Source of the DNA: a virus
DNA: 26,561 nucleotides
Strand: one strand, 5' to 3'
IMG/VR virus record: IMGVR_UViG_3300041955_001073
Coordinates: 1 to 26,561 of that record
The position numbers and the translations under genes are program-made. This document shows positions 889 through 24,804 of this stretch, piece after piece (position 1 is the first letter of the stretch; each line of letters starts with the position of its first letter). A model generated the notes under the pieces. That model searched no databases, was not told where the DNA came from, and saw nothing but the letters and a program-made list of their open reading frames with translations.

Positions 889-1421
889 CGCCGGCCCGAT
901 CGGCAACCGCCTGGGCGTCAACCGTTGGCCGGCCCGATCGGCAAAGCGCCGGAGGGCGAACCGCTGGCCGGAGGGCAGGGCAAGCGCCGGCCCCGATCGG
1001 CGAACCGCCTGGGCGTCAACCGCTGGCCGGCCCGATCGGCAAAGCGCCGGAGGGCGAACCGCTGGCCGGAGGGCAAGGCAAGCGCCGGCCCCGATCGGCG
1101 AACCGCCTGGGCGTCAACCGCTGGCCGGCCCGATCGGCAAAGCGCCGGAGGGCGAACCGCTGGCCGGAGGGCAAGGCAAGCGCCGGCCCGATCGGCGAAC
1201 CGCCTGGGCGTCAACCGCTGGCCGGAGGGCGAACCGCTGGCCGGCCCGATCGGCAAACCGCCTGGGAGTCAACCGCTGGCCGGAGGGCGAACCGTTGGCC
1301 GGCCCGATCGGCAACCGCCTGGGCGTCAACCGCTGGCCGGCCCGATGGGCAAAGCGCCGGAGGGCGAACCGCTGGCCGGAGGGCAGGGCAAGCGCCGGCC
1401 CCGATCGGCGAACCGCCTGGG
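889..1421. repeat. GC-rich mosaic tandem repeat, 98-bp period
   Basis: Second array of the same modules as 1-345 in a different arrangement. The unit starting TGGCCGGCCCGATCGGCAAAG begins at 926, 1024 and 1122, an exact 98-bp period. From about 1220 shorter partial units with shuffled modules follow. Overlapping open frames occur on both strands (for example 925-1500 plus and 918-1256 minus), but they encode only Gly/Pro/Ala/Arg low-complexity strings and I do not treat them as genes. Confidence 0.9.
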
Positions 1422-1465
1422 CTATCCCTGCCCTATCCCTGCCCTATCCCTGCCCTATCCGTACC
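1422..1465. repeat. 11-bp tandem repeat CTATCCCTGCC
   Basis: Three perfect copies of CTATCCCTGCC at 1422-1432, 1433-1443 and 1444-1454, then a degenerate fourth at 1455-1465. It abuts the end of the 98-bp array and ends the GC-rich block. An 11-bp unit is not a codon multiple, which fits non-coding DNA. Confidence 0.9.
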
Positions 1466-2443
1466 CTACCCGCAAACCTTCTAGCATCATTGCATCATAA
1501 CCCCCTATGTCCTATCATCTTAGAGCAATGATTCCAAGCAACTGGCGGGTTATGCGCGCGATATGTAGACAAGCTGATAGAACATAAGTAGCTTGCTGGT
1601 AAATAGTTACGTCAACCGATTCTGCATTTTCTCACGCGCGGTTAGAGGGTACGGTTAGCGTTTTGCGCTTCAGCCTACATAATCGTTAGGCACGGCATAA
1701 GCGTTGTGACCCTTGCAACCCGAGCAGCCTCGACCCCGCACCGCCGGCACGATCGGTACTTCCGGCAGAGGCCAGAAGGTGTGCATAAGCCTTGCAGACG
1801 GCACGAAGAAACGCAAGCCTAGTCGAGATAATGGGTTATGTTAACCCGGCGCTTGCTTCCTGGGCAGGGCAACCCGGCGGAGCAAGCGCCCCTGGGGCGT
1901 CAATTCGACCCGATCGGGCCATACTTGCGCCTCCTTGAACCGACATCGAAGCAGGCGCAAGTAGTTGGATTGTAATGGCTTACGTGTTTATCCGGTTCCG
2001 ATTGTACCGATTATGACGCGAAAGGGTGGTGGAGGGTCGGTCAATTAGGGAAAACCGACACAACCGGCAAATCCGGCGCGCGCTGGTGCTCTTTCGACAG
2101 GCATGTCCCCAAAACCTGGGGGTCTGCCGCGTCAGGGGTAAACGGAAGGTCGGCCAACGGCGGCACCGTTGGTTGGTGCTGGAAACCAGGGTCCGCCGCG
2201 TCAAGAGTAAACAGGCAAGGCGGCCACGGCGGCTGCGTACTTCAGCGTGAGTCGAAGTGCCATCGGAGCCCAAGCCAACGGGCTTCCGAGGCCCTGGATC
2301 GAGCCGGCCGCCAGGGTCATGCCGTCCAAAAGAAGGGAAAACACCCTCTGGTCAACCACCGTTTACACGCAGGCTGCCTCTACTACCGCAGAGCATGGGA
2401 GATAGGTCTGAAAGAGAGCCTCCTGCGAGTGGCACAACACCGC
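1466..2443. other. gene-free stretch with inverted and direct repeats
   Basis: I see no supportable gene in these roughly 980 bases; the frames present are short, Arg/Pro-rich and lack ribosome sites. It does contain structure. TACTTGCGCCT at 1922-1932 is mirrored by AGGCGCAAGTA at 1953-1963. GCGCTTGCT at 1849-1857 is mirrored by AGCAAGCGC at 1881-1889. An imperfect direct repeat pairs 2121-2143 with 2190-2212 (69-bp offset, 20 of 23 bases). A 26-base segment at 1575-1600 nearly repeats 821-847. It could be a decayed gene or a cis-acting region. Confidence 0.6.
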
Positions 2444-3580: not shown

Positions 3581-4294
3581 ATGCAGACCTACGTTTCCTA
3601 CCACTTTCAACGCCTGGACCGTGCCGCCGTTACCAAGTTTGTTGAATATAACGAGGGCAAGCTCCTGGGGGAATACGTCGATCGGGCCAAGAAGTGGCCC
3701 CATTTGGTAGAAGCCATCGCCAAGTGCCAGGAGACCGGCGCAGCCCTGATTATCGCCGAAGTCGGCCGATTTGCTCACAACGCCAAGTTCCTCAGTCTGC
3801 TGATGGAATCCGGCGTGGATTTCGTCTGCCTGGATTTTGAGAAGTGCAATCGCTACACGATCGCTATTCTGGTGGCCACCGCGGAAGAGGAGGCTGCGAA
3901 GACCAGTCAGCGTTTGCGGAAAGGTATGGCCGCCGCCAAGGCGAAGGGTATGAAGCTCGGGTCGGCTCGGCCTGGCCATTGGGAAGGGCGTGAGCATCGT
4001 CGGGGCACCAAGCAGGCGATCGCCGCCTCGGCGAAGATGCGTCGGATTCGCGCCCGCCAGGCGTATGAGTTTCTTCTGCCCGACCTGAAGCGGCTGCGGC
4101 TGGAAGGCAAGACGATGGACGAGATCGCCGGGTGGTTGAACAGTCACGGGCACCTGACGACGACGGGCGGCCCGTTCAACCAGGTCTCCGTGCATCGGCT
4201 GTTGAAGCGATACCTCGGCGATGATTTTCTTGGCAAGACCAAGGACCGTGGTGGCAATCCTCAGATCATCAAGGCGATGGAGAGAACGACGTGA
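3581..4294 (+). CDS. diverged serine recombinase (resolvase-like), probably catalytically altered
   Basis: The protein (237 aa) aligns over most of its length with the intact small serine recombinase at 6678: it shares the LMES/LMET helix, the AEEEA segment, the helix ending [13 protein letters not shown], the WEGREHxRGxKQA linker and a C-terminal HTH (MDEIAGWLNSHGHLTTTGGP). The N-terminus, however, is shortened and altered. The family motif YxRVSxxRQ reads TYVSYHFQ (Ser6 kept, the preceding Arg lost), and the catalytic DRLARN reads GRFAHN, so Asp and the second Arg are replaced by Gly62 and His66. Strand exchange is therefore doubtful. DNA binding through the C-terminal half is still likely, so it may be a regulator or a decaying copy. 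The next gene overlaps its stop by GTGA. Start ATG has only a weak GAGCG-type ribosome site. Confidence 0.8.
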   Translation: MQTYVSYHFQRLDRAAVTKFVEYNEGKLLGEYVDRAKKWPHLVEAIAKCQETGAALIIAEVGRFAHNAKFLSLLMESGVDFVCLDFEKCNRYTIAILVATAEEEAAKTSQRLRKGMAAAKAKGMKLGSARPGHWEGREHRRGTKQAIAASAKMRRIRARQAYEFLLPDLKRLRLEGKTMDEIAGWLNSHGHLTTTGGPFNQVSVHRLLKRYLGDDFLGKTKDRGGNPQIIKAMERTT

Positions 4295-6611: not shown

Positions 6612-6639
6612 TTGACATTCACCGATTTTGTGATAGGCT
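6612..6639 (+). promoter_or_regulatory. promoter-like motif before serine recombinase
   Basis: TTGACATTC (6612-6620), four bases, ATTTTGT (6625-6631), then TAGGCT as possible -10 (6634-6639, 16-bp spacer); TATAAC at 6641 is an alternative. It shares TTGACATTC-N4-ATTTTGT with the sites at 8061 and 14480. Confidence 0.6.
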
Positions 6640-6677: not shown

Positions 6678-7481
6678 ATGTCCGTGCTCCGCTATGTCCT
6701 CTACTACCGGGTTAGCACCAAGCGGCAGGGCAAATCCGGCCTTGGCCTTGAGGCTCAGCAGAGGGACGTGGAAGCCCTGGTTGCCGCGAAGGGCGGCGTG
6801 GTCATTGCTCAGTATACAGAGATCGAGACCGGCAAGAACCCGGATCGACCCGAGTTGGCGAAGGCCCTGGGCCACGCTCGGTTGGCGAAGGCGACTCTCA
6901 TAGTGGCGAAGCTCGACCGGCTCGCCCGCAATGTGGCGTTTGTCTCCACGTTGATGGAGACCATCAAGGCTGATGAAGGGTTTGATTTCACTTGCTGCGA
7001 TTGCCAGGGGGCGAATCGCTTCACGCTCCATATCCTGGCCTCGGTCGCTGAGGAAGAGGCCCGGCTGATCGCCGAGCGGACCAAGAAGGCCCTGGCCTCC
7101 GCCAAGGCCCGCGGCGTGAAGTTGGGTTCGGCTCGTGAGGGTTGCTGGATCAAGCGTGATGATACGCGGGTTTGGCGTCCGGGCGCGTGGGAGGGCCGCG
7201 AGCATCTGCGGGGCTTCAAGCAGGCCACGGAGCGGTCGGCGATTGTTCGCCGCCGGGATTGTGAAAGGAAGTATGCCTTTCTAATTGAGCAACTTCGGGA
7301 GCGACGGGCCGAAGGTATGACGCTGAAACAGATTGCCGACTGGCTCAATGAGAAAGGCCATTCAACATCCAAGGGGAAGCCTTGGACTGAGGCCCTGGTC
7401 TGCCGTTTGTTTCAGCGTTACGCCCCGGAGTGCTGTGGGCGTGTCCAGATTCAGAGGGGGTTGAATAGTGTTGTCGGCTGA
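6678..7481 (+). CDS. small serine recombinase (resolvase/invertase family)
   Basis: Site-specific DNA recombinase, 267 aa. The N-terminal resolvase domain (about residues 5-150) is intact: YYRVSTKRQ with catalytic Ser13, the SGLGLEAQQ loop, and DRLARN at 80-85 supplying Asp80, Arg81 and Arg84. The linker carries KLGSAR and [14 protein letters not shown], and a C-terminal HTH ([20 protein letters not shown], then GKPWTEALV) binds DNA. At this length it belongs with small resolvase/invertase-type enzymes, not the large integrases with zinc-ribbon and coiled-coil domains. Start at ATG 6678 with AGGAA nine bases upstream; the frame is open further upstream but is only shadow sequence. It overlaps the HNH chimera by 14 bp, so the two are co-translated. 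It carries a 12-residue insertion before AWEGRE absent from its relatives in the window. Confidence 0.92.
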
Positions 7482-8064
7482 GGACTTTGATCTCACCGTG
7501 TTGCTACGTGAAATGGGTGCCGGGTCGTTCAGCATCCGCGCTAATGTTGGTGAGACACCTTTAGACGGCACCCTTTGTTTTGAGTGCGATCATCCTGCTG
7601 AGGGTTGGCATCACCCTGTCCCAAGGAGCCGTGGTGGCAAACTGGCGATACCGCTTTGCGCTGTGTGTCACGCAAAGGCACACCACGTCGGGCATAACAT
7701 GGCACACAGGACTTTGACTAAACAAGGCTTGCAGCGAGCAAAGGCCCGCGGGGTGAAACTTGGCTCTGCTCGTCCGGGCGCGTGGGAGGGCCGCGAGCAT
7801 CTGCGGGGCTTCAAGCAGGCCACGGAGCGGTCGGCGATTGTTCGCCGCCGCGACAACGAGAAGAAGTACGCCTTCCTGATCGAAATGCTGCGGGAGAGGC
7901 GTGCTGAGGGGCTGACGTTGGACCAGATTGCCACCTGGCTCAATGAGAAAGGCCATTCAACGCCCACGGGCAGACCGTGGAACAAGGCTCTCGTTTGCCA
8001 GTTGTTCCAGCGACATGCCCCGGAGTGCTGTGGGCGCGCCCGGAAATCCCCTGTGGCGATTTGA
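7468..8064 (+). CDS. HNH nuclease domain fused to serine-recombinase DNA-binding half
   Basis: 198 aa chimera. Residues about 35-75 form an HNH/zinc nuclease motif: C37xxC40, [10 protein letters not shown] with His48/His49, then C64xxCH and His72. From residue about 84 to the end the protein is a near-copy of the second half of the neighbouring recombinase ([20 protein letters not shown]…, [18 protein letters not shown]-terminal APECCGR). DNA bases 7176-7255 and 7771-7850 are identical over 80 bp, so the duplication is recent or kept homogeneous. The resolvase catalytic domain is absent. I infer a site-specific endonuclease that reads the same site as the recombinase. GTG start with GAGGGGG seven bases upstream, overlapping the recombinase stop. 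Alternative: an inactive by-product of gene duplication, but the HNH residues are intact. Confidence 0.85.
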
Positions 8065-8088
8065 CATTCTGTGATTTTGTTATGCACT
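8061..8088 (+). promoter_or_regulatory. promoter-like motif before SprT-like gene
   Basis: TTGACATTC (8061-8069), four bases, ATTTTGT (8074-8080), followed by TATGCACT. The TTGACA lies at the stop of the HNH chimera. It matches the sites at 6612 and 14480; the -10 is imperfect (TGCACT at 16-bp spacing, TATGCA at 14). Confidence 0.55.
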
Positions 8089-8121
8089 TGAGTAGTTGAC
8101 GAACATCCTGGAGACTGCACC

Positions 8122-8727
8122 GTGTTACGTGAAGAGTGGCTGGAAAAGGCGATCGACTTACTGCGGCCCGACTTCGACACGATCGGCACGACGCTGCCGG
8201 AGAAGATTCGGGTCTCGTGCGGCTTCCCCTCGAAGTCAGCCCTGTCGCCCACGAAGCGTCGTATCGGCGAGTGTTGGGGCGTCGAGTCTAGCGAGGATAG
8301 CTCGTACCAGGTCTTCATCAGCCCTGTGCTGAAGGACAGCCGTGAAGTCGCGGCCACTTTGGTCCACGAGTTGGTCCACTGCGCAGTCGGTATCGAATGC
8401 AAGCATCGCGGGAAGTTCCCCAAGGTCGCCAAGCAAATCGGCCTGGAAGGGAAGATGACCGAGACCACGGCCGGCGAGGCGTTGATCGTGCGGATCAAGG
8501 AACTGATCGAGTCACTCGGGGAGTACCCGCACGCTCGTCTGGTCGCCAGCAGCAAGCCCAAGACCCAGACCACGCGGATGCTCAAAGTCGTCTGCAAGGA
8601 ATGTGGCTGTGTGGTGCGCATGACACGGAAGTGGCTCGACGATGCCGGGCTGCCGACCTGTGGCTGCGGCGGCGAAATGGAGGAGGAAGAGGGCGAGGAC
8701 GGCGAGGACGGAGGGGACGACGAATGA
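8122..8727 (+). CDS. SprT-like zinc metallopeptidase
   Basis: 201 aa. The SprT/Spartan-type active site HELVH is at residues 82-86 with a third ligand candidate His95 (ECKHRGKF), followed by a C-terminal zinc ribbon (C158xxC161 and C180/C182) and a very acidic tail (EEEEGEDGEDGGDDE). SprT-like proteins are found in many phages, and their eukaryotic relative Spartan removes proteins crosslinked to DNA; the substrate here is unknown. GTG start with GGAG eight bases upstream and a promoter of the shared family about 40 bases before it. It heads a run of tightly spaced genes, the next one overlapping as ATGA. With a topoisomerase-like gene downstream, a role in clearing DNA-protein crosslinks is an attractive but unproven idea. 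Confidence 0.88.
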   Translation: MLREEWLEKAIDLLRPDFDTIGTTLPEKIRVSCGFPSKSALSPTKRRIGECWGVESSEDSSYQVFISPVLKDSREVAATLVHELVHCAVGIECKHRGKFPKVAKQIGLEGKMTETTAGEALIVRIKELIESLGEYPHARLVASSKPKTQTTRMLKVVCKECGCVVRMTRKWLDDAGLPTCGCGGEMEEEEGEDGEDGGDDE

Positions 8728-14479: not shown

Positions 14480-14507
14480 TTGACATTCAGCCATTTTGTT
14501 GTATACT
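14480..14507 (+). promoter_or_regulatory. strong promoter-like motif before permuted GHKL gene
   Basis: TTGACA (14480-14485), 16-bp spacer, TATACT (14502-14507). The spacer contains ATTC-N4-ATTTTGT, shared with 6612 and 8061. It is the best -35/-10 pair of the family; the gene starts at 14546. Confidence 0.7.
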
Positions 14508-23810: not shown

Positions 23811-24074
23811 ATGGCCGAGCGACGGTGTGCGAATTGCCCGCCGGAGCCGGCGAAAACGAAGCTGCCGGCCCCGTCTACCCTTGTGCTCGAAGACGGCAAG
23901 CGGCTTTGGCATCATACGCTCGTCACCGCCAACATGACCGTGGAAATGATGCGCGTTTACACGCTTCTTCGGACGCCCGGCGGTGATCCTGCTGCCTTGC
24001 GTCAGGTGGCGGTGGAACTGTTGAAAGTGGCCCAGACCTGCGAGGAAAACAATGCGAATCTACGTTCCGCGTAG
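23811..24074 (+). CDS. hypothetical protein, 87 aa
   Basis: ATG 23811 with GGGAGG seven bases upstream. Begins MAERRCANCPPEPAKTK with Cys6xxCys9; then a helical body (RLWHHTLVTANMTVEMM; AALRQVAVELLKVAQTC). No family recognised. It overlaps the repeat-protein gene by 23 bp, so the two are probably translated together. Confidence 0.65.
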   Translation: MAERRCANCPPEPAKTKLPAPSTLVLEDGKRLWHHTLVTANMTVEMMRVYTLLRTPGGDPAALRQVAVELLKVAQTCEENNANLRSA

Positions 24075-24804
24075 TGCTTATCCGTTGGTGTCGATCATGC
24101 TCTTTACGTCCAAGGGTGAAGTCAGCGTGACGGTCGATGATCGCCATCGTTGGGTGGACATCCCGTTGCCGGAAGGCGTCGTCGAAGACGAGGTGGACGT
24201 GTATTCCTGCTTCCTGCAAGCGAACGGCCGGCCGCCTTACGGCTGCGGTCCGTCGCTATTGGTGGCGGCGAAGCAGAAGCATGTACCCGCGGAAGTCATT
24301 GCGTCGGTCAATCAGGCTCCGGTGGACACGGATTCGGTGGACACGACTCCGGCGACTCCGGCGGCTCCGGTGGACCAAGCGGTTGCCCCGGCGGACACGA
24401 CTCCGGCGGCTCCGGCGGACCAGGCAGTTGCTCCGGCGGACACGACTCCGGCCGCTCCGGTGGACCAAGCGGTTGCCCCGGCGGACACGACCCCGGCCGC
24501 TCCGGCGGACCAGGCAGTTGCTCCGGCGGACACGACTCCGGCCGCTCCGGCGGACCAGGCGGTTGCTTTGGCCGCTCCGGTGGACGCGGCCCCGGTCCCG
24601 GTCGCTCCGGTAGACACGACCCCGGCCCCGGTCGCTCCGGTAGACACGACCCCGGCCTCGGCCGTTCCGGCGGTTGCTCCGGTGGATCAGGCGGCTCCCC
24701 CGGTGGACACGACCCCGGCGGACACGACCCCCGCTGCTCCGGCAGATCAGGCAGTTTCCCCAGCCCCGGTGGATACGACCCCGCTTGCTCCGGCGGCGAA
24801 TTAA
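24052..24804 (+). CDS. Pro/Ala repeat protein, 250 aa
   Basis: The N-terminal 80 residues form a small beta-rich domain (FTSKGEVSVTVDDRHRWVDI; with Cys53 and Cys65 in a SCFLQANGRPPYGCG segment). Residues about 97-250 are a low-complexity tail with a 15-residue unit (VAPADTTPAAPADQA and variants), exact units at 111-125, 126-140, 141-155 and 156-170, followed by shorter Val-Asp-Thr-Thr-Pro units. The corresponding DNA is a 45-bp tandem repeat. GAGGA five bases before ATG 24052. Extended, proline-rich acidic tails are used as spacers in surface and tail-associated proteins; the true role is unknown. Confidence 0.75.
   Translation: MRIYVPRSAYPLVSIMLFTSKGEVSVTVDDRHRWVDIPLPEGVVEDEVDVYSCFLQANGRPPYGCGPSLLVAAKQKHVPAEVIASVNQAPVDTDSVDTTPATPAAPVDQAVAPADTTPAAPADQAVAPADTTPAAPVDQAVAPADTTPAAPADQAVAPADTTPAAPADQAVALAAPVDAAPVPVAPVDTTPAPVAPVDTTPASAVPAVAPVDQAAPPVDTTPADTTPAAPADQAVSPAPVDTTPLAPAAN
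24360..24570. repeat. 45-bp tandem repeat within a coding region
   Basis: In-frame units at 24382-24426, 24427-24471, 24472-24516 and 24517-24561, with a partial unit before. A multiple of three keeps the frame. Because of the repeat, stop-free frames arise on both strands here and are not genes. Confidence 0.85.

What the first reader, a model, noticed from the sequence alone, without database searches (positions are those of the whole stretch)
6678..8064. Serine recombinase followed by an HNH nuclease that reuses its DNA-binding half
The second gene keeps the recombinase linker and HTH (80 bp identical, 7176-7255 versus 7771-7850) but swaps the catalytic domain for an intact HNH motif. The genes overlap by 14 bp. 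A recombinase and a nuclease probably reading the same site suggest an invasion or site-protection scheme: cut unoccupied sites and recombine into them, or compete at one site. I know of no named system of this design.
Basis: partly seen in the sequence, partly recalled or inferred. Interest (0 to 1): 0.78.

Follow-up and report, generated by a model that had tools for sequence, protein, structure and literature searches.

The report
Phage nuclease wearing a recombinase's tail
A small DNA-cutting gene has inserted itself inside a phage's DNA-recombinase gene and taken over that gene's original DNA-gripping tail; related viruses show the same trick many times over, which suggests selfish nucleases that re-aim themselves by capturing the recombinase's targeting half.

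Summary
P0001 (6678-7481) is an intact serine recombinase. P0002 (7468-8064, 14-bp overlap) has an HNH head joined to the recombinase αE end, linker and HTH. It is not an oddity: I found 23 distinct HNH-plus-recombinase-tail proteins in uncultured viral contigs. HNH residues are invariant and the genes are under purifying selection. No such head was found in 289 alphaproteobacterial genomes, and no full-length homologue among cultured phages or plasmids.

The key result is a natural empty site. Related phage L011/L012 has one uninterrupted recombinase gene. Against it, window ~7143-7742 is an insertion at the AKARGVKLG codons. So the HNH tail, not the recombinase's, is in the position of the original tail; the recombinase now ends in an extra copy. 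L009 shows the same, with a foreign replacement tail on its recombinase.

Across the family, HNH tails do not form one clade (AU p=7e-6), and in several lineages they are closest to the neighbouring recombinase's tail (permutation 3/40,320). About half of the proteins sit alone, like ordinary free-standing homing nucleases.

Best reading: a homing-type HNH gene that invades recombinase genes and captures the resident DNA-binding tail. Cleavage of the recombinase's site is inferred, not shown. Odn of phage ICP1 is the closest precedent.

The parts
6612..6639 (+). promoter-like motif TTGACATTCnnCCATTTTGTGGTATGAT upstream of the recombinase
   Evidence: three copies in window (6612, 8061, 14480), 0 expected; same motif upstream of orthologues in L011, L248, L009
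6678..7481 (+). P0001, serine recombinase, catalytic residues intact
   Evidence: Pfam Resolvase 1.3e-28, Recombinase 8.7e-6; RxS and DRLxR motifs present
7101..7141 (+). left copy of the alpha[13 protein letters not shown] codons, left boundary of the insertion
   Evidence: direct repeat D2; blastn to empty-site relative L011 ends at 7142
7134..7175 (+). 14-residue insertion in P0001 linker ([13 protein letters not shown] region), probable recombination scar
   Evidence: absent from P0002 and L011 tails
7176..7255 (+). 80-bp stretch identical to 7771-7850 (recent conversion or duplication tract)
7143..7742 (+). inserted segment relative to the uninterrupted recombinase gene of L011/L012: copy of the recombinase tail plus HNH head
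   Evidence: L011 5605-6030 and 5994-6972 align to window 6702-7142 and 7743-8694, both ends meeting at the AKARGVKLG codons
7468..8064 (+). P0002, HNH-recombinase-tail chimera (198 aa)
   Evidence: dN/dS 0.19 against L009 homologue, synonymous sites near saturation
7576..7686 (+). HNH motif C37..C40..H48H49..C64..C67H68..H72
   Evidence: invariant in 20 homologues; PF01844 in 11 of 20
7738..8061 (+). alphaE end, linker and HTH of P0002: in the position of the native recombinase tail by synteny
   Evidence: one blastn match 7743-8694 to L011 running through into the SprT gene
7771..7850 (+). second copy of the identical 80 bp
8061..8084 (+). promoter-like motif of the next gene, overlapping the HNH stop codon; a weaker form of the motif overlaps the recombinase stop codon in L011
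8122..8727 (+). SprT-like gene, right flank marker shared with HNH-less relatives
   Evidence: PF10263 0.0023, below its curated cut-off, phrog_6361 3.8e-52; 79-81% identical in L009, L011, L248
3581..4294 (+). P0003, paralogous recombinase with lost catalytic Ser and D-to-G change, same tail type

Best explanation
P0002 is a free-standing homing-type HNH endonuclease whose gene invaded a phage serine-recombinase gene at the conserved alphaE codons (AKARGVKLG). The invasion left the catalytic half of the recombinase joined to an extra copy of a tail, and joined the HNH head in frame to the resident tail, which is now the nuclease's DNA-binding domain. SHOWN: the insertion relative to an uninterrupted relative, the conserved HNH residues, the purifying selection, the repeated exchange of heads and tails. 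INFERRED: the nuclease is guided by the captured tail to the recombinase's (or a rival allele's) recombination site, places the HNH head where the recombinase catalytic domain would sit, and nicks or cuts there; repair of the break in a co-infecting phage copies the HNH locus into it or excludes the rival's allele.
For: Empty site: L011/L012 recombinase is one uninterrupted gene whose two halves align to window 6702-7142 and 7743-8694. L009 has the same insertion; its HNH tail is 78-80% identical to the L011 recombinase tail and its SprT gene 89%, while its own recombinase tail is 63-66% identical to that of L248. 23 distinct fusions; HNH residues invariant; dN/dS 0.04-0.19. HNH tails do not form a clade: 17 changes for 20 rows, at least 6 on starred branches, AU p = 7.4e-6. 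HNH tails match the local recombinase tail: 3 of 40,320 permutations as good, 3 of 720 without window and L009. More than one kind of head occurs side by side on locally derived tails (L044/L045), and two chimeras in tandem also in L055 and L327. Orphans sit in replication modules like ordinary free-standing homing nucleases. HNH head is poorer in G+C than its surroundings in window (0.55 vs 0.62) and L009 (0.53 vs 0.61).
Against: No cleavage site or recombination site was identified. No donor and recipient pair of nearly identical phages was found; the empty-site comparison is at about 70% DNA identity. In L042, L017, L232 and L055 the tail is not especially close to the local recombinase. 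A DNA-level insertion could also come from illegitimate recombination without homing. The tail tree has only 100 columns and many weak branches. P0002 itself scores below threshold for HNH models. The orphans show that the tail can work without any recombinase nearby, so 'reads the recombinase site' need not hold in general.
Confidence: 0.5

Rival explanations
1. Rival-targeting nuclease: the HNH head carries the tail of a competing phage's or allele's recombinase and destroys that competitor's recombination site during co-infection, as Odn of ICP1 destroys the replication origin of PLE satellites. Spread by homing is secondary.
For: In L009 the nuclease carries the L011-type tail while its own recombinase carries the L248-type tail, so it could cut the rival allele's site and spare its own. 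Odn is a tested precedent of a captured DNA-binding domain on a nuclease (PMC8263062).
Against: In the window, L044/L045 and L327 the nuclease tail is closest to the phage's own recombinase, which would endanger its own site. No competitor or site identified.
Confidence: 0.2
2. Functional partner of the recombinase: the chimera binds the same site and nicks it to bias, license or end recombination, or protects the site; it is kept for the phage's benefit.
For: Adjacent and overlapping genes, probably one transcript; tails track the local recombinase; strong purifying selection.
Against: Most relatives of the recombinase lack the nuclease (L011, L248, nearly all of L256-L335); 12 of 20 records searched have no resolvase (fragments); heads are of several kinds.
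Confidence: 0.12
3. The chimera is a DNA-binding competitor or repressor of the recombinase; the HNH head is retained as a zinc-binding fold without cleavage.
For: The clade also keeps a catalytically dead recombinase paralogue with the same tail type, so non-catalytic tail proteins exist here.
Against: HH and CxxCH...H residues invariant in 20 diverse homologues, expected for an active nuclease.
Confidence: 0.08
4. Plain tandem duplication and illegitimate recombination with no special mechanism: HNH genes landed by chance downstream and in-frame fusions were fixed by drift.
For: Phage genomes are mosaic; tails also differ between recombinases without any HNH (L011 vs L248).
Against: Junction at the same alphaE position in independent lineages, in-frame, with selection on both halves.
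Confidence: 0.1

Closest known systems
Odn, origin-directed nuclease of Vibrio phage ICP1 (PMC8263062)
   Same: small phage nuclease of chimeric origin whose DNA-binding domain is captured from a site-specific DNA-binding protein of another mobile element
   Different: Odn takes its nuclease domain from a phage homing-nuclease family (GIY-YIG/T5orf172, partly from general knowledge) and a RepA-type origin-binding domain; here the head is HNH and the tail is a serine-recombinase alphaE/HTH, exchanged repeatedly in many lineages, and in the window the chimera arose inside the recombinase gene. Cleavage is shown for Odn only
T4-type free-standing HNH homing endonucleases, mob genes (PMC2988022)
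   Same: intergenic or overlapping small HNH genes in phages, HNH head plus a separate tail; several of the present family sit in replication modules in the same way
   Different: mob tails are not described as taken from recombinases; homing not tested here
Nucleases at boundaries of genetic exchange in phages (PMC10448857)
   Same: nuclease gene lies at a junction of two lineages (L009: L248-like recombinase tail on the left, L011-like sequence on the right)
   Different: that study concerns T5orf172 and HNH-IPA families, not recombinase tails
IS607/IS605-type pairs of recombinase TnpA and nuclease TnpB/IscB
   Same: recombinase and nuclease genes side by side in one element; nuclease likely helps retain the element (general knowledge and abstracts)
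   Different: TnpB is RNA-guided and does not share a DNA-binding domain with TnpA; no transposon ends here
Large serine integrases (Pfam Recombinase PF07508)
   Same: tail of P0001/P0002 matches this domain; one locus (L343) has an HNH next to a large-serine-integrase type tail, reading frame broken
   Different: P0002 lacks the resolvase catalytic domain

Membership tests
HNH endonucleases (beta-beta-alpha metal) | HH...C-x2-C-H...H active-site pattern with zinc cysteines | tested here: met
   C37, C40, H48, H49, C64, C67, H68, H72 invariant in 20 sequences; PF01844 in 11 of 20 members; P0002 itself below threshold
HNH endonucleases (beta-beta-alpha metal) | beta-beta-alpha metal fold | tested here: inconclusive
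   AlphaFold model mean pLDDT 77.7 with strand-strand-helix at 46-71; no significant PDB match, best relevant IscB prob 0.30
HNH endonucleases (beta-beta-alpha metal) | DNA nicking or cleavage | not testable with these tools
   needs protein
Serine recombinases (for P0002) | resolvase catalytic domain with nucleophilic serine | tested here: not met
   no PF00239 match in P0002
Serine recombinases (for P0001) | resolvase domain with RxS and DRLxR | tested here: met
Free-standing homing endonucleases (intronless homing) | presence/absence polymorphism in related phages at the same locus | tested here: met
   present in window and L009, absent from L011/L012 and L248/L249 at the same locus
Free-standing homing endonucleases (intronless homing) | cleaves HEG-less allele and is over-inherited in mixed infection | not testable with these tools
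   needs phage crosses
Odn-like captured-domain nuclease | DNA-binding domain derived from the DNA-binding protein of the element it targets | tested here: inconclusive
   capture from recombinases shown; target not known
Recombinase plus nuclease always paired | every chimera lies beside a full recombinase | tested here: not met
   12 of 20 records searched had no Resolvase match (records are fragments)

The most novel reading that the evidence does not exclude
A class of phage HNH nucleases that re-aims itself by recombination: each time the gene enters a new phage it lands in the resident serine-recombinase gene, takes that recombinase's DNA-binding tail as its own targeting domain and leaves the recombinase a different tail. 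This would give a nuclease that cuts at the recombination site of the phage just displaced, and would switch the specificity of the recombinase.
Probability: 0.25. Interest if true: 0.82.

Novelty: new variant of a known kind. Interest (0 to 1): 0.62.

Why it matters
It gives a second and recurrent natural example, after Odn, of a nuclease acquiring its targeting domain from another element's DNA-binding protein, with a natural uninterrupted relative that shows the step. If the chimeras cut at recombination sites, they are ready-made site-directed nucleases, and they would help explain how the tails of these phage recombinases are exchanged. The paired recombinase and nuclease genes also make a direct test of site sharing possible.

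Tried and rejected
Single-sequence searches with P0002 in viral and genome contigs gave nothing because of the peptide patterns chosen; profile searches worked. The direct repeat TTGACATTC... at 6612 and 8061, flanking the two genes, looked like element ends; it is a promoter-like motif found upstream of other genes and in relatives. Hits to PaBG and HRDY3 phage proteins are HNH genes with a different tail. I searched for inverted repeats as recombination sites around the recombinase in the window, L011 and L248 and found none. I searched for a scar of a lost HNH gene in the L248 intergenic region and found none. Searching 289 alphaproteobacterial genomes with the HNH-head profile gave none at E 1e-9, while the positive control rang in 9 of 9 viral records. 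Structure search gave no significant match. Flank comparison for L327, L045, L042, L333 and L055 found no close relatives outside the recombinase gene itself, so no second empty site could be shown.

Full report
OBSERVATION. The window is a 26,561-base IMG/VR virus record. P0001 (6678-7481) and P0002 (7468-8064) overlap by 14 bp. The two genes share a 274-nt repeat at 82% with an 80-bp identical core at the stated coordinates, and a second 41-nt repeat over the AKARGVKLG codons. P0001 is a serine recombinase with all catalytic residues. P0002 has no resolvase domain; it has a CxxC...HH...CxxCH...H head joined to the recombinase alphaE end, linker and HTH (one search matches Pfam Recombinase at residues 137-182). 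A third member of the tail family, P0003 (3581-4294), has lost its catalytic serine.

IS IT A FAMILY? Profile scans of viral contigs found full-length and partial relatives. By a strict motif count there are 23 distinct HNH-plus-recombinase-tail proteins. Alignment of 20 shows C, C, HH, C, CH and H invariant, and the alphaE sequence AKARGVKLG nearly so. 11 of 20 match Pfam HNH and 18 of 20 match Pfam Recombinase. dN/dS is 0.04-0.19 in four pairs over the whole gene (synonymous sites are near saturation for window-L009). The best 80 cellular loci contained only recombinases. 289 alphaproteobacterial genomes had no HNH head of this kind at E 1e-9, while the same profile rang in 9 of 9 positive viral records. 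tblastn with P0002 gave five weak partial hits each in cultured phages and plasmids, and the L042 chimera gave no match in cultured phages. The family therefore lives, as far as held data go, in uncultured viruses.

THE EMPTY SITE. L011 and L012 (identical in the stretch held, from two metagenomes) are related phages with one uninterrupted recombinase gene followed by the same SprT-like gene. Their recombinase aligns to window 6702-7142 with its first half and to window 7743-8694 with its second half and on through the SprT gene. So about 600 nt (7143-7742), holding P0001's tail and the HNH head, are extra in the window, and the junction lies in the alphaE codons on both sides. The stop codon of the HNH gene sits inside the promoter-like motif of the SprT gene, as the stop codon of the uninterrupted recombinase does in L011. 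By position, the HNH tail is the original recombinase tail. L009 shows the same arrangement: its HNH tail is 78-80% identical to the L011 recombinase tail and only 41-46% to its own neighbour, whose tail is 63-66% identical to the recombinase of L248. L009 thus has an L248-like tail on the left and L011-like sequence on the right, with the HNH head between. In the window itself the two tails are 84% alike with an identical 80-bp tract and a 14-residue scar in P0001, which reads as later conversion or duplication. This last step is inference.

REPEATED EXCHANGE. In a tree of 20 HNH tails and 109 recombinase tails the HNH label needs 17 changes, at least 6 on well-supported branches; holding the HNH tails together is rejected with p-AU 7.4e-6 (100 columns only). 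Where a recombinase of the same tail type is in the locus, the HNH tails match it better than expected: 3 of 40,320 permutations reach the observed sum, 3 of 720 when window and L009 are left out. L045 carries two different HNH heads on two tails that are both closest to the local recombinase, and L327 carries two HNH genes on such tails. Not all loci follow this: L042, L017, L232 and L055 do not. In all seven fusion-bearing records with a Resolvase match the resolvase is adjacent, as it is in the window; the other twelve fusion records had none, though these are fragments. Of those orphans, several sit in replication or DNA-metabolism modules: between helicase and primase (L036), next to Sak4 (L174), near an exonuclease (L029), near an intein-bearing ribonucleotide reductase (L026), next to a tyrosine integrase (L033). 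This is the usual setting of free-standing homing endonucleases (PMC2988022).

MECHANISM. The most economical account is a homing-type HNH gene that has become able to enter recombinase genes at their most conserved DNA stretch and to take the resident tail as its DNA-binding domain. That the tail guides the HNH head to the recombinase's site follows from the domain's known role in serine recombinases (established knowledge) but is not shown. HNH nucleases of phages often nick (PMC2988022). Whether the target is the phage's own site, a rival's site (Odn logic, PMC8263062) or a stretch of the recombinase gene is open. No recombination site could be found by inverted-repeat search.

NOVELTY. Paper searches for HNH with serine recombinase, resolvase or captured DNA-binding domains found no description of this architecture; the library lacks most subscription journals. 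The general kind, a phage nuclease with a captured DNA-binding domain, is known from Odn. The recurrent capture from serine recombinases and the insertion inside the recombinase gene are new as far as I could check.

Noticed in passing
window 3581-4294 and L011, L014, L015, L016, L018, L020, L021, L023, L027, L030, L031, L032, L248: Conserved pair of serine recombinases in this phage clade: one intact and one paralogue whose catalytic Ser is usually replaced (W, G, Q or R; a Ser remains in L020 and L021) and whose D in the KLDRL motif is always G, both with a related tail. Looks like a conserved dead-recombinase partner or regulator.
   Followed up: partly
window 6612-6639, 8061-8084, 14480-14503; L009 6433; L011 5534, 6330; L248 3995, 4929: Recurring promoter-like motif TTGACATTCnnCCATTTTGTGGTATGAT about 54-75 nt upstream of several gene starts, with a conserved spacer, so it may bind a further regulator.
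   Followed up: partly
L343 2841-3564: HNH pieces next to a large-serine-integrase type Recombinase domain with a broken reading frame: a possible capture from the integrase branch.
   Followed up: no
L029 3233-3616: HNH head joined to a short resolvase/Hin-like HTH instead of the Recombinase-type tail, directly after another HNH chimera.
   Followed up: no
window 918-1500: GC-rich repeat-like stretch giving long overlapping repetitive ORFs on both strands.
   Followed up: no
window 24052-24804: Proline/alanine/threonine-rich repeat protein (TTPAAPADQAVAPAD units).
   Followed up: no
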